This document shows, piece after piece, positions 1 through 10,790 of a DNA stretch of 32,067 nucleotides. The notes beneath the pieces are model-generated. The model was not told where the DNA came from and made no database searches. It saw only the letters and a program-made list of their open reading frames with translations. The stretch lies in NCBI GenBank assembly GCA_947652925.1, contig CANTEW010000031.1:1-32067 (forward strand), in the 5' to 3' direction. The position numbers and the translations under genes are program-made. Every line of letters begins with the position of its first letter. Within the stretch, counting starts at the first letter, position 1. The DNA comes from an uncultured Lachnospiraceae bacterium. Its GTDB lineage: Bacteria > Bacillota > Clostridia > Lachnospirales > Lachnospiraceae.

Positions 1-1111
1 TAATACTTCCTTTTACTATTTCCTGATCAGAAACATCATCATTTATGATTGCATTATTTTCTTCTTTTCTGGCTTCTGTCAGCAAAAAAGAAACCTCTCT
101 TAATTGATGTGTTGTCAGAAGCTGTACAAAACGATGGATTTTGGTTTTACTTTCAACCCATACTTTACCATTGTAATAAAGATAGTCCGTTGCAGTAGAA
201 TAACGGACAACATCTTTAAATACCTTTACGAATACATTCGTCTGTCCTAAATCCGTAAAATCATTTGGTTTCAATGTTTCTGCTTTAGAAAACAATTCGT
301 ATAATTCCGGCGGAAGATAATCAGGACTGTTCTCCGTTTTTTCATGATAATGTTTACAAACACTTTTCCAGATACTGATTAGTTCTGTTTCCTCCATAGG
401 CGGTACACATTTTTTAATTTCGCTACAAAATGCGGAATATGCTTTATCAGATTCTCCCCAGCGTGTGACTACACGGGTCGCATAGTCAAAAAGTGTACTA
501 TGTCGTTTCCCATAAGGAATAATACTGTTATTTTCTGGAAAACTATTCTTATTAAATGATTCCTGAATATCTAGTTCAACTGTTTCCATAAAATCTGACA
601 ATACAATATCTCCATCCTGAAATTCTATCTGCGGATTTTCAACACCAAAGAAAAAACGGGCAGAATCCTTTGCATTAGCATCAAATGCTGTAAAATAGGC
701 GCATACTTTATTTTTCAGTTTTTGATATTCTGTACTGTTTTCAATCAGCCTGTCAGGAAAATATACATGGAACTTCGGACGTGCCGCCTTTCCATCTTTT
801 ATTTTCATGTGGTTTCTTGAAAATACAATATAAAAACATACATTCGGAAACTTCTCCTTAACATCAACAGGATATATCCAATCGGAAGGATTATCACTGT
901 CAGAATTGTCAATATCAAACATGGTACAATCTGAATGGATAAAATGCTCCTTTTTCCGGTGATTATTCTTGTACCTGGCACACACATGGTCATGAGATAC
1001 GGCTGTCTTTAAATCATTTTCGGAACTTATTTGTATCTCATTCGGATAAAACTGATTGCTTGCAGTTTGGCATGTGTTGCTGTAAAATAGTGTAAAATTG
1101 GTTTTTGTCAT
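1..1111 (-). CDS. Phage/plasmid-type primase (AEP + PriCT-like), 3' end outside window
   Basis: An uninterrupted frame of 370 codons runs leftwards from an ATG at 1111 to the window edge, preceded by AGGAGGT (1119-1125) 7 nt upstream. Seen: a DID motif at residues 66-68 (FDIDNSDSD) and an FHVYF motif with His115, matching the DxD and sxH motifs of archaeo-eukaryotic primases. Around residues 205-255 there is a helical segment (STLFDYATRVVTRWG..AYSAF, then ISIWKSV) typical of the PriCT domain, followed by a YYNGKVWVES stretch like the start of D5-type primase-helicase regions. From the family, such proteins prime replication of phages, plasmids and integrative elements, usually with a C-terminal SF3 helicase. 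That part lies beyond the edge and is inferred. The gene is AT-rich with A/T-ending codons, unlike all genes to the right, so it is probably acquired. Confidence 0.8.
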   Translation of the reverse strand, partial: MTKTNFTLFYSNTCQTASNQFYPNEIQISSENDLKTAVSHDHVCARYKNNHRKKEHFIHSDCTMFDIDNSDSDNPSDWIYPVDVKEKFPNVCFYIVFSRNHMKIKDGKAARPKFHVYFPDRLIENSTEYQKLKNKVCAYFTAFDANAKDSARFFFGVENPQIEFQDGDIVLSDFMETVELDIQESFNKNSFPENNSIIPYGKRHSTLFDYATRVVTRWGESDKAYSAFCSEIKKCVPPMEETELISIWKSVCKHYHEKTENSPDYLPPELYELFSKAETLKPNDFTDLGQTNVFVKVFKDVVRYSTATDYLYYNGKVWVESKTKIHRFVQLLTTHQLREVSFLLTEARKEENNAIINDDVSDQEIVKGSI

Positions 1112-1318
1112 CGTATTTACCTCCTATTTTCCATACAGAGAGATTGTCTCTGAAATTTTTGTATTTGAGGGCATAAAAAACAGCCATGTTGTTATCCCGA
1201 AAGATAACTAACATGACTGTTTTGCGTTAGTTTTTTAGAATTATGGCTTGTCCGGTCAATGATTACCGATATTCGACGGAATAAGCAGATTTCCCTGTCA
1301 TTTTGATGATCAACTCAT
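1112..1318. other. AT-rich intergenic stretch next to the element/chromosome junction
   Basis: This gap separates the primase from the truncated SpoIID-like gene. It holds the primase ribosome binding site, a short dyad CAGAGA-gattg-TCTCTG at 1136-1152, and a long hairpin at 1177-1223. I found no convincing promoter and no start codon with a ribosome binding site. A short open stretch in another frame on the minus strand, ending at 1263, is not assigned. Confidence 0.5.
1175..1223 (-). terminator. Long hairpin with T-tracts, probable terminator
   Basis: Left arm 1177-1196 and right arm 1203-1223 pair almost fully: GTTATC with GATAAC next to the 6-nt loop, then AACATG and CTGTTTT outward, with one bulged T and one C/A mismatch. 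On the minus strand the stem is followed by TTTTTT (1175-1180). On the plus strand it ends in TTTT and another T-run follows at about 1231-1236. It could therefore terminate in both directions. It sits between the chromosomal SpoIID-like fragment and the primase, so it may insulate the element from host transcription (inference). Confidence 0.6.
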
Positions 1319-2041
1319 TCAGCGTAAGGGCTTTACAACCCTGAACCACCGTGTATTCCGGTACCACTCCGTATAGACACGATTCAGTGTGAAAGACATG
1401 ATCGCCAGCACATTCGCGCGGATAGTATCCGCAGGCCAGGTAGCGTAGATCTCACTGGAGGCCACATTTTTGATATAATCTTTGTATCTGACATAATAAT
1501 CCCGGGCCGTATTGTCGGAAGGAACACCGTCATGGACCACCACATACTCCGGCACCACCACCCGGCTCAGCACGATCTCCCCGGTCTCGTCCATAGGTTT
1601 GATCTCTTCTTCCGGTATCTTAGGGGGATAATCCCCATACAGAGTATGCGCTGGGATCACCAGGTTATCGATCTGCTCCCCGGGTTCCTCTGGTTCAAGA
1701 TAAACAGACTGCAGCGCTGTGGCTGTCGGGAGTATCTCTACACCGCTGATATCAAAAGGCGTATAGCCAGGAGCCGTGACATTCAGCGTATATTCTGAAT
1801 AAGGCTGTATATCCCCTGGTTCCAGACTGTAATCCAACGGGGGTGCCGGCAGATCCAAGGACGGACTCTGCCCGGACTCATCTGTTGTGATCTCCTCAAT
1901 GACCTGTGTCGGATCTCCTGTATAAGATATCTGTATCTTGGCATCTCTGATCGGTACATTCCTGATCGTGGATTGTACATTGATCTGTAATCTTCCTGTG
2001 TCAGACTGGCTCCTCTCCATGATACGCATTTGATCGTTCAT
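1319..2041 (-). CDS. SpoIID-like spore peptidoglycan protein, truncated at its C-terminus
   Basis: 240 codons, ATG at 2041 with GGAGAG 6 nt upstream. Residues about 15-55 and 70-115 look like carboxypeptidase-regulatory beta-sandwich repeats (YTGDPTQVIEEITTDESGQ; YTLNVTAPGYTPFDISGVEI). Residues about 190-229 match the start of the SpoIID/LytB fold: YKDYIKNVASSEIYATWPA then IRANVLAIMSFTLNR, with the Glu that corresponds to the SpoIID catalytic Glu. From memory of Lachnospiraceae relatives, the protein continues well beyond EWYRN with more SpoIID sequence and a C-terminal peptidoglycan-binding domain. Here, after EWYRN (about 1355), an unrelated 11-residue tail runs to a stop at 1319. The loss coincides with the switch to AT-rich sequence, so the gene is probably interrupted by the element on its left and non-functional as it stands. 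The missing part may lie at the element's other end. Confidence 0.75.
   Translation of the reverse strand: MNDQMRIMERSQSDTGRLQINVQSTIRNVPIRDAKIQISYTGDPTQVIEEITTDESGQSPSLDLPAPPLDYSLEPGDIQPYSEYTLNVTAPGYTPFDISGVEILPTATALQSVYLEPEEPGEQIDNLVIPAHTLYGDYPPKIPEEEIKPMDETGEIVLSRVVVPEYVVVHDGVPSDNTARDYYVRYKDYIKNVASSEIYATWPADTIRANVLAIMSFTLNRVYTEWYRNTRWFRVVKPLR
1327..1342. repeat. Imperfect dyad at the element junction
   Basis: AGGGCTTTACAACCCT is an imperfect inverted repeat, perfect in its outer four bases on each side. It lies between the stop of the truncated gene and the point where SpoIID-like coding ends (about 1355). It could be part of a recombinase binding or attachment site. No second copy is visible in the window, so this is only a candidate. 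Confidence 0.3.
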
Positions 2042-2214: not shown

Positions 2215-3498
2215 CTATAACATCCTCACGATATCATGGTACATGACCACAAACATCAACGCCATCAACAGGACAAACCCAGCCATATGGATCATAGCCT
2301 CTGCCTGGCGGTTGACTGGCTTTTTCCGTATTGCCTCGAGGAACAGGAAGATCAGCCGCCCTCCATCCAATGCCGGGATCGGGAGCAGGTTCATCACCCC
2401 TAAGTTGGCAGAGAGCAATACAGCGATGTTGAGCATACTGGCCCACAGGATCATACTGCCTTCCGGTTTTGCCGCTTCATAAGTATCCCCGATCACATCC
2501 ACCACGCCTACCGGACCTGACAGATCTTTGATCCCAAACTGGCCTGTGAACAATTTTGACAGACTCATCACTGTAGTCCGGATCCAATATTTTACTTCAC
2601 AGGCAGCATATCTCAATACATTCCAGGAAGAGGCCTTCTCACGGCCCACATTATAATGAAAGCCCAATGTCACCTGTGTGTGGCTGGCCGGGGTCACTGT
2701 GACCTCTCTGCGCGTCCCTTTATGCTCATAAGTGATATCCAGCGGCTCCTTTTCCAAAGGATGTTCCTGGATATACGTTTCATAGTCTCCCTGTGTGTCG
2801 ATCGCTGTCCCGTTGATCTCCACGATCACATCTCCCGGCTGTATGCCGGATCTTTCTAAAGGCATCCCTTTCATCAGTGAAGCCACTTCCAGTCTCTCTG
2901 TATCTGCACGGTTAAAGCCCATGAGATATTTCTCATATGTCTCTGGCTGATAGGATATCTCCTGTTTTTTCCCATCCCTTTTGACTGTCATCTCGATAGG
3001 CGCATCTTCCAGTTCATTGAGAGCGAGCCATGTGTTCAGATCCTGTCCTATATCGATGGCATAACCCTGGAATCTCGTGATCTGGTCACCCGCCCGCAGG
3101 CCAGCCTCATAGGCCGGTGAATCTTCCGGCACGTCCAGCACCCTGGAAGGCACATACCCCATCATGGCCACGATGATCACAGACAAGACAAAGGCCATGA
3201 TAAAATTAAAGACAGGGCCCGCCGCGATCACAGCGATCCGTCCCCACACAGATGCAGAATTAAAAGACCCCGGCACCTGGCTGTCTTCGTCCTCACCCAG
3301 CATCATACAGGAACCGCCCAGGGGCAAAAGCTTCAGGCAATACTGGGTCTCCCCTCTTCGTGTACTTATGAGCGTCGGTCCCATCCCAAGCGAGAACTGC
3401 TGGACTACAATGCCGTTTTTCTTCGCAAGGAGAAAATGTCCCAATTCATGAAATAAGACCAAAACACTGAATATGATAAGAGCAATGAGAATCTTCAA
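2215..3498 (-). CDS. rseP: RseP/RasP-type site-2 zinc metalloprotease
   Basis: A 427-residue intramembrane protease of the M50B family. It cleaves membrane-bound anti-sigma factors and remnant signal peptides inside the cytoplasmic membrane. Seen: an N-terminal membrane helix with the zinc motif HELGH at residues 17-21; PDZ-like stretches around 110-165 (SPAYEAGLRAGDQI) and 200-270 (ERSGIQPGDVIVEINGTAI); and a C-terminal NLLPIPALDGG motif (LDG about 377-379) supplying the third zinc ligand, followed by membrane helices. The start is TTG at 3498 with AGGTGG just upstream, inside the end of dxr. Only one base separates the dxr stop from this start, which suggests translational coupling. It is the last gene of the operon. 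Tandem PDZ-like regions are usual for RseP; B. subtilis RasP has one. Confidence 0.95.
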   Translation of the reverse strand: MKILIALIIFSVLVLFHELGHFLLAKKNGIVVQQFSLGMGPTLISTRRGETQYCLKLLPLGGSCMMLGEDEDSQVPGSFNSASVWGRIAVIAAGPVFNFIMAFVLSVIIVAMMGYVPSRVLDVPEDSPAYEAGLRAGDQITRFQGYAIDIGQDLNTWLALNELEDAPIEMTVKRDGKKQEISYQPETYEKYLMGFNRADTERLEVASLMKGMPLERSGIQPGDVIVEINGTAIDTQGDYETYIQEHPLEKEPLDITYEHKGTRREVTVTPASHTQVTLGFHYNVGREKASSWNVLRYAACEVKYWIRTTVMSLSKLFTGQFGIKDLSGPVGVVDVIGDTYEAAKPEGSMILWASMLNIAVLLSANLGVMNLLPIPALDGGRLIFLFLEAIRKKPVNRQAEAMIHMAGFVLLMALMFVVMYHDIVRML

Positions 3499-10160: not shown

Positions 10161-10790
10161 TATGATATCATAAAATTGTCCCCCGCAGCGCTCCACCTCG
10201 CCCAGCACAGCCTCGATACCTTTCTTTGATCTGTACCAGTCGCAGCGGCTGATACCTTCCGTATCGCTGGGCGATACATAAAACTGCGTATCCGGGAACA
10301 ACAGCTGATAATAGAGCAGACACCGGCGCGCATGATAACTCTTACAGCATAGGATACCTTTCTCGATCACCAATCCCATCTCATCTGTACACTGCCTTGA
10401 GTATATAGCATTTTCGTAAGTATAGGATGCCCGGTCCTCTTTCAATATACAGCGCTCATCCACACCGTTCTCCAGCAGCACCTCCCGCAAAAACATCCAC
10501 TCTGTATCATAACTGCCCGTATATTTCCCGCCCTTATCCAATACACCTGAAAATCCCTCTGCACAGATACTGTATCTGCCGCTGGGGAGTACATAAGGCG
10601 CCATCCCCTGTTTCCAGAGCCCCGCTGCCTGTTCAGCCATCTGTGGATAGCCATTCCCCGGCACGAAGATCATATCTGCCCGCTCCACCGGCGTCTCCAC
10701 AAAGATAAACTCTGTGATCTGATCCAAAAAACGTTCATACATACCCATTTCCCCATCCACTGAAAGACGCCCTGCCGCCTTTTTTATCAT
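10143..10790 (-). CDS. DUF218 (YdcF/SanA/ElyC-like) family protein
   Basis: 215 residues. Seen: ADMIFVPGNGYPQMAEQAAG near residue 38, the nucleotide/Rossmann-like start typical of DUF218; YVLPSGR; a conserved ENAIYSR-type segment after ILKEDRASYTY; and IEKGILCCKSYHARRCLLYY, like the YdcF signature in which a histidine follows a serine-containing turn. DUF218 proteins have poorly defined roles. Some (SanA, ElyC) are tied to envelope integrity and lipid-carrier use, but those have a membrane anchor that is absent here. Its ATG overlaps the stop of the upstream SEDS gene (10787-10790), implying translational coupling and a possible wall-related job (inference). Confidence 0.8.
   Translation of the reverse strand: MIKKAAGRLSVDGEMGMYERFLDQITEFIFVETPVERADMIFVPGNGYPQMAEQAAGLWKQGMAPYVLPSGRYSICAEGFSGVLDKGGKYTGSYDTEWMFLREVLLENGVDERCILKEDRASYTYENAIYSRQCTDEMGLVIEKGILCCKSYHARRCLLYYQLLFPDTQFYVSPSDTEGISRCDWYRSKKGIEAVLGEVERCGGQFYDIIKDLEV

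What the first reader, a model, noticed from the sequence alone, without database searches (positions are those of the whole stretch)
1224..2041. Integrative element breaks into a SpoIID-like sporulation gene, possibly a developmentally excised insertion
The SpoIID-like protein loses its homology within the fold, right after EWYRN (about 1355), where sequence turns AT-rich and leads into an element-type primase. Known spore-forming bacteria carry elements in sporulation genes (sigK skin, spsM, spoVFB) that excise in the mother cell and restore the gene. If the missing 3' part sits at the element's other end in frame, this would be a new host gene for such a switch. Seen: truncation and composition change. 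Inferred: element identity and excision.
Basis: partly seen in the sequence, partly recalled or inferred. Interest (0 to 1): 0.75.

Follow-up and report, generated by a model that had tools for sequence, protein, structure and literature searches.

The report
Split germination gene with excisable insert
In this gut spore-former the gene for SleC, the enzyme that opens spores at germination, is cut in two by a mobile element, and many relatives have the same gene cut at the same codon by related elements, so the gene is probably stitched back together only in cells that are making a spore.

Summary
The window holds its 5' part. The 3' part lies on contig C27, right after the C-terminal part of a large serine recombinase. 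A same-genus relative has the empty site; the two ends share a 10-bp core (window 1356-1365) and join in frame. In an even sample of the family I count 42 interrupted genomes among 261 with a SleC-family match, at one of three sites; two genomes have sleC cut twice. Two distant recombinase clades serve sites A and B. All 37 split genes that I joined (36 sleC, one paralog) read through, and 13 measurable pairs with split genes show the same purifying selection as intact pairs. Inserts range from 1.9 to 41 kb; a 146-kb phage contig carries a site-A recombinase beside an apparent attP. All 31 interrupted genomes tested have spoIVA. Most likely mechanism: skin-like, mother-cell-specific excision that rebuilds sleC. 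Excision was not observed, and a promoter test for mother-cell control was uninformative. Nine literature searches listed no report of sleC as such a host gene. It is a new, unusually widespread host gene for a known kind of switch.

The parts
1363..2041 (-). 5' part of sleC (about 226 codons up to the crossover in ...VYTE-WY...)
   Evidence: Homology to intact relatives and to PDB 9h68 ends here; blastn synteny with L031 from 1356
1356..1365 (-). attL core GGTACCGGAA, also present at attR on contig C27 (GT at C27 1041-1042); crossover dinucleotide GT at window 1363-1364
1..1362 (.). left end of the inserted element, cut off by the contig edge
   Evidence: AT-rich; no match to the empty-site relative; same sequence class at the same site in L039
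2..1111 (-). 5' part of a phage-type helicase/primase gene inside the element, runs off the contig
   Evidence: PHROG 1883 DNA helicase, E 5.7e-108; D5_N only below its cut-off; 96.8% identical copy at the same place in L039
1319..2041 (-). chimeric 240-aa frame: sleC 5' part plus about 12 residues read from the element
2215..3498 (-). neighbour upstream of sleC, membrane protease-like ORF (name rseP recalled, not from a call), shows the chromosomal side
   Evidence: ORF list; syntenic with L031

Best explanation
The window holds the left junction of a mobile element integrated by a large serine recombinase into sleC, the gene for the spore cortex-lytic enzyme. In vegetative cells sleC is split. 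During sporulation the recombinase, helped by a directionality factor (candidate: the small protein encoded just upstream of it in relatives), recombines attL with attR at the GT core in the mother cell, releases the element as a circle and rebuilds a full-length in-frame sleC whose product goes into the spore. The mother cell then dies, so the spore chromosome keeps the element. Shown: interruption, both halves, core repeat, recombinase, open joined frames, purifying selection, recurrence. Inferred: that excision happens, its timing and cell type, and the role of the small protein.
For: Both halves and the empty site in a relative; only one copy of each half in the genome. Recombinase domain protein abuts attR. 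37 of 37 joined genes open, one of them needing two joins. dN/dS of pairs with a split gene 0.020-0.044 (13 of 15 pairs measurable) against 0.009-0.040 in intact pairs (8 of 11). Element ends show dyad symmetry about GT: 15.7 of 30 against 6.1 in the empty sites and 7.0 in shifted controls. 42 interrupted genomes in a sample with 261 SleC-family carriers (recount 88), against two-piece spoIVA in 5 of 261 carriers of the same sample. spoIVA in 31 of 31 interrupted genomes tested. sleC is a sigma-K gene, essential for germination, in C. difficile (PMC3789822, passages). sigK is itself split in 4 of the 31. Minimal inserts of 1.9-3.4 kb persist.
Against: No excised junction was seen; no reads or expression data were available. 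The sigma-E-like promoter scan was uninformative, its positive control failing too. Joins were placed at the core found by homology, so they test for stops and frameshifts, not for the act of joining. The comparison partners of dN/dS may have split before the insertion, and many dS values are near saturation. The own recombinase lacks its N-terminal part in the assembly, so its integrity is unknown. In 2 of 23 interrupted genomes the 3' part was not found. The element moves between genera, so some insertions are recent and decay would not yet show.
Confidence: 0.8

Rival explanations
1. Ordinary prophages or integrative elements use sleC as a harmless landing place; insertion inactivates sleC in lineages that can spare it, with no programmed excision.
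For: Some elements are recent arrivals: recombinases of L005 and L037 are near-identical in different hosts, and the own element's primase is 96.8% identical in a Dorea MAG whose SleC part is 63% identical. A 146-kb phage contig carries the same recombinase family. Low dN/dS can reflect the time before insertion.
Against: No stop or frameshift in 37 of 37 joined genes; genes cut twice with three selected pieces (G432); inserts reduced to a recombinase and a small gene persist; all three members of the L059/L065/L090 group are split yet show dN/dS 0.029-0.044 between them.
Confidence: 0.13
2. Excision is not developmental but happens at random in a small share of growing cells; only those cells make functional SleC, as bet-hedging or simple leakiness.
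For: The yin element of C. botulinum is found both integrated and excised within one culture (PMC10747680, abstract and passages). No sporulation-specific promoter could be shown here.
Against: Free excision during growth would tend to lose an element that has no way to return; minimal inserts without visible transfer genes persist in several genera.
Confidence: 0.05
3. Assembly artefact: the break is a wrong join or a contig edge.
For: The genome is in 100 contigs and the window starts at a contig edge.
Against: The same core recurs at the same codon in many genomes, including single-contig assemblies (G345, G426) and named isolate records (Hespellia stercorisuis DSM 15480, Faecalicatena orotica, Mediterraneibacter massiliensis, [Ruminococcus] torques ATCC 27756).
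Confidence: 0.01

Closest known systems
skin element in sigK of Clostridioides difficile (recombinase CD1231, directionality factor CD1234; PMC5025042, passages seen)
   Same: Large serine recombinase element splits a mother-cell sporulation gene; small protein needed for excision; precise in-frame rebuilding (shown there, inferred here).
   Different: Host gene is sleC, a germination enzyme, not a sigma factor; recombinases at sleC sites A and B form clades apart from the four sigK recombinases taken here from related genomes (CD1231 itself was not compared).
SP-beta in spsM of Bacillus subtilis (PMC4191935, passages) and vfbin in spoVFB, vrin in spoVR (named there)
   Same: Phage or phage-derived element interrupts a mother-cell gene and is kept in the spore genome.
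   Different: Those papers describe one site per gene; here one gene has three sites and is sometimes cut twice.
gin in gerE of Bacillus cereus ATCC10987 (PMC5595907, passages)
   Same: Intervening element without phage genes, with serine recombinases; precedent for non-phage cargo.
   Different: Different host gene; gin is 28.6 kb with three recombinase genes, against inserts here down to 1.9 kb with one.
yin in yabG of Clostridium botulinum (PMC10747680, abstract and passages)
   Same: Clostridial element in a sporulation gene on the same pathway: YabG processes pre-pro-SleC in C. difficile.
   Different: Its authors found it in one strain only; sleC inserts occur in 42 genomes of the sample.

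Membership tests
Sporulation-gene intervening element (skin type) | Splits the coding region of a sporulation gene whose halves lie at the two ends | tested here: met
   relatives
Sporulation-gene intervening element (skin type) | Short direct repeat at both ends; joining at it gives one open frame | tested here: met
   10-bp core; 37 of 37 joined frames open
Sporulation-gene intervening element (skin type) | Element encodes a site-specific recombinase | tested here: met
   C-terminal 352 residues at attR in the own genome; full-length with Resolvase, Recombinase and Zn-ribbon in relatives (Zn-ribbon below cut-off in L059)
Sporulation-gene intervening element (skin type) | Host gene is expressed in the mother cell | not testable with these tools
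   Known for C. difficile sleC (PMC3789822); not measured here
Sporulation-gene intervening element (skin type) | Excision occurs during sporulation, in the mother cell | not testable with these tools
   No reads, no expression data
Sporulation-gene intervening element (skin type) | Recombinase or directionality factor under mother-cell control | tested here: inconclusive
   sigma-E-like scan of 15 regions not informative; control failed
SleC (spore cortex-lytic enzyme) | Collinear with known SleC over the whole length | tested here: met
   Intact relative L002 against 9h68, residues 16-420, E 9.1e-127; PG_binding_1
SleC (spore cortex-lytic enzyme) | Cortex-lytic activity in spores | not testable with these tools
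   needs an assay
Stage II sporulation protein D (SpoIID) | Reaches the curated score of the SpoIID models | tested here: not met
   TIGR02870 12.7 and 19 bits against 234.75; PF08486 16.1 and 19 against 23
Temperate phage (own element) | Phage structural genes in the element | tested here: inconclusive
   Only a phage-type helicase is in view on the truncated contig; relative L213 has a tail fibre gene

The most novel reading that the evidence does not exclude
sleC is the centre of a family-wide system of programmed DNA elimination: separate recombinase lineages have specialised on different codons of one germination gene, some lineages need two excisions to make the enzyme, and inserts have become a home for ordinary growth-phase genes (nucleoside-type uptake genes with the genome's only thymidine kinase, chemotaxis CheC/CheD) that the mother cell discards, like germline-limited DNA in a bacterium.
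Probability: 0.35. Interest if true: 0.88.

Novelty: new variant of a known kind. Interest (0 to 1): 0.76.

Why it matters
Sporulation-time gene rebuilding is described for sigK, spsM, spoVFB, spoVR, gerE and yabG in the papers seen. If true, this adds the enzyme that starts germination, makes the phenomenon common in one family of gut spore-formers (42 interrupted genomes in a sample with 261 carriers), and shows repeated independent targeting of one gene by two recombinase clades. It would tie germination, and so the spread of gut commensals, to correct excision of mobile DNA, and it offers a natural series from a 146-kb phage contig to a 1.9-kb remnant for studying how a parasite becomes a switch. 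It also warns annotators that a split sleC should not be scored as loss of germination.

Tried and rejected
Sigma-E-like promoter scan upstream of 15 small genes: two of 15 had P below 0.15 (0.02 and 0.11) and 13 did not; the spoIVA control also failed (P 0.4), so the scan says nothing. Pattern for the own element's rejoined ends in viral contigs: no match. Small upstream protein: no match under E 0.004 in Pfam (6 proteins), PHROGs or NCBIfam. Own contig C85 carries a recombinase that falls inside the site-B clade, but the contig ends about 300 bases after it and no host gene could be named.

Not counted as interruptions: G239 (adjacent pieces, frameshift), G140, G091, G143, G233, G364 (full-length hits), G131 (a 37% paralog), G141 (contig edge); G438 (gene continues past the site), G118 and G443 (contig edges), G120 (contig edge); L027 (contiguous) and L066 (contig end). 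The 49 genomes were picked by eye (best E weaker than about 1e-148), so the count is a lower bound and the 261 include carriers of paralogs. Prevalence was not taken, whose patterns included the element-encoded tail of the own ORF and so favour similar junctions. Of 25 site-B genomes, 13 were checked in sequence (G174 and G421 on one side only) and 12 rest on residue boundaries (list). All 17 site-A genomes were checked in sequence (G369's left side only by the join; G437's right side is odd, its 3' piece reaching back to residue 197). In six genomes only one half was seen (G089, G184, G202, G238, G097, G261). G341 and G067, G436 and G064, and G202 and L039's genome are taken as the same by identical coordinates or contig length.

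Full report
What is there. The window is a complete contig of a 100-contig genome. Its left end is AT-rich and carries the start of a phage-type helicase/primase gene that runs off the edge. From 1356 rightwards it is syntenic with a same-genus relative, L031, for more than 9 kb. The 240-aa ORF at 1319-2041 (-) matches proteins of 419-421 residues in the three same-genus genomes with a hit, up to EWYRN, and then departs. The intact protein is collinear with the solved pre-pro-form of the spore cortex-lytic enzyme (PDB 9h68, E 9.1e-127) and ends in a peptidoglycan-binding domain, so the gene is sleC. SpoIID models stay under their cut-offs.

The missing half. A search of the own genome with the relative's C-terminal 192 residues finds one place, contig C27 at 1048-1620, 95% identical. 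Directly before it an open frame of 352 residues carries the Recombinase and zinc-ribbon domains of a large serine recombinase and runs across the junction into sleC in another frame. In L031 the match of the window ends at 10683 and that of C27 begins at 10674: the ten shared bases are the core GGTACCGGAA. The N-terminal part of this recombinase is not in the assembly, so the element's size and full content are unknown.

Recurrence. Among 110 loci, 14 besides the own one are cut at the same codons (site A) and nine about 65 codons further on, in CP(N/G)WM (site B). The 3' part was found in 21 of 23 of these genomes (misses G063 and G073). In 13 of 13 site-A pairs the ends share GT at the same place. 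Element ends set side by side show dyad symmetry centred on it, as expected of a serine-recombinase attP: mean 15.7 of 30 positions over 19 elements (range 10-22), against 6.1 for the empty sites and 7.0 (sd 2.2) for shifted controls. For prevalence I used an even sample of 396 genomes of the family, of which 261 have a SleC-family match at E 1e-30. Following up 49 with weak or split matches, adding five already known and checking sequences, I count 42 interrupted genomes: 17 at site A, 25 at site B and two at a third site near the PEYV codons (G313, G228), with G421 and G432 cut at both A and B (recount). In the same sample 261 genomes have a spoIVA match, 254 over the cut-off and 5 in two pieces. 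In G341 (the same genome as G067) a second sleC-like gene with another C-terminus is also cut at site A, by a 1.9-kb insert.

Function is kept. Joining the parts at the core gives one open frame in 22 of 22 cases, in 14 of 15 and, for the one script failure, G387, in a separate script: 37 of 37, of which 36 are sleC and one the paralog. G432 needs two joins and gives 420 codons. The join was placed at the shared core by homology, so what is tested is the absence of stops and frameshifts. Pairs that include a split gene have dN/dS of 0.020-0.044 in the 13 of 15 pairs with a measurable value, against 0.009-0.040 in 8 of 11 intact pairs; many dS values are near saturation and part of the divergence may precede insertion. 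The trio L059, L090, L065 (89.5-96.4% identical SleC) is split in every member, with dN/dS 0.029-0.044. The recombinases of L059 and L090 are only 57% identical and none was found for L065, so occupancy by descent is not proven. All 31 interrupted genomes tested have spoIVA over its cut-off. SigK is whole in 26 of the 31, the own genome included, split into two separated pieces in four (G036, G028, G075, G250), and not seen apart from paralogs in G313.

The machinery. In a tree of 42 recombinases the 22 site-A rows, the 15 site-B rows and the four from split sigK each lie on one side of a branch with 100/99 support, separated by long branches. One site-A row (phage L213) and one site-B row (viral L287) were labelled by similarity, not by location, and the own C85 recombinase, whose site is unknown, falls inside the site-B clade. 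So two lineages target sleC independently, and the site-B clade may use other sites too. In 15 of 20 site-A elements a small gene with a shared core, roughly VxLEFP followed by IxxEIKxIL, lies upstream of and close to the recombinase; two of the 15 are only weakly alike, L005 and L037 are near-copies, and my motif filter may have missed others. It matches no family in the three libraries tried. By position and size it is a candidate directionality factor, like CD1234 of C. difficile (PMC5025042, passages); this is inference. Inserts run from 1.9 kb, and several of 2.4-3.4 kb that hold little more than the recombinase and a small gene or two, to 41 kb. A 145.7-kb viral contig (L213) has a site-A recombinase followed by a core with inverted arms, read by eye as an unsplit attP, and phage genes. 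The own element's primase is 96.8% identical to one at the same site in a Dorea MAG (L039) although the SleC parts are 63% identical, so the element moves between genera.

How it most likely works. In C. difficile sleC is a sigma-K gene and SleC is called essential for germination (PMC3789822, passages). A mother-cell gene is a safe place for a passenger that leaves only in the mother cell: the spore chromosome keeps it and the enzyme is still made (the argument made for SP-beta in PMC4191935, passages). The evidence fits programmed excision better than simple inactivation, because minimal and double inserts persist beside intact, selected halves. Excision itself, its timing and the small protein's role are not shown, and the promoter scan was uninformative.

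Known or new. Hosts of such elements named in the passages seen are sigK, spsM, spoVFB, spoVR, gerE and yabG. Nine full-text searches listed no paper on an interrupted sleC; I opened passages of seven papers and saw the rest as listings only. The library holds only open-licence papers and no preprints. I file the finding as a new variant of the skin kind: same logic, new host gene, recombinase clades apart from the sigK ones compared, several sites in one gene, and high frequency. Membership in the excising class is not proven until excision is seen.

Noticed in passing
L096:10779-16372; L147:8964-13931; L169:1489-2617; L157:1136-3709: Inserts in sleC carry ordinary host-type genes: PnrA-like ABC transporter plus thymidine kinase (the only match in that genome), a nucleoside phosphorylase and a metalloenzyme-family protein (a 62% copy exists elsewhere), CheC and CheD, a GH3 enzyme.
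   Followed up: partly
G036:C1, G028:C62, G075:C5, G250:C5 (L289-L293): sigK is also split in 4 of 31 genomes with split sleC; the G028 insert looks, by eye, to carry a peptide-type transporter operon and a 66-aa gene before its recombinase.
   Followed up: partly
G341:C64 = L179 (also L136): A sleC paralog with a different C-terminus is cut at site A by a 1.9-kb insert of one recombinase and a 51-aa gene, in the same genome as a split sleC.
   Followed up: partly
L213:4968-6800: 145.7-kb phage contig with a site-A recombinase beside an apparent unsplit attP.
   Followed up: partly
L212 and L287, same viral contig IMGVR_UViG_3300035327_000291: Carries both a site-A recombinase next to a sleC 5' part and a site-B-clade recombinase, like the doubly cut G432.
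   Followed up: partly
L214-L288: 75 viral-contig loci encode relatives of the site-B recombinase, many close to a contig end as if trimmed at a host border; attachment sites not examined.
   Followed up: no
G000:C85:4690-6117 (L188): Own genome has a second recombinase inside the site-B clade, not in sleC, at the edge of a 6.4-kb contig.
   Followed up: partly
L144:1845-3092: The insert of Faecalicatena orotica (L056) contains a reverse-transcriptase-family gene (PHROG 1423).
   Followed up: no
G313 (L178), G228 (L184, L185): Third insertion site in sleC near the PEYV codons; the G313 insert has two smaller serine recombinase-like ORFs (only the larger matched), unlike sites A and B.
   Followed up: partly
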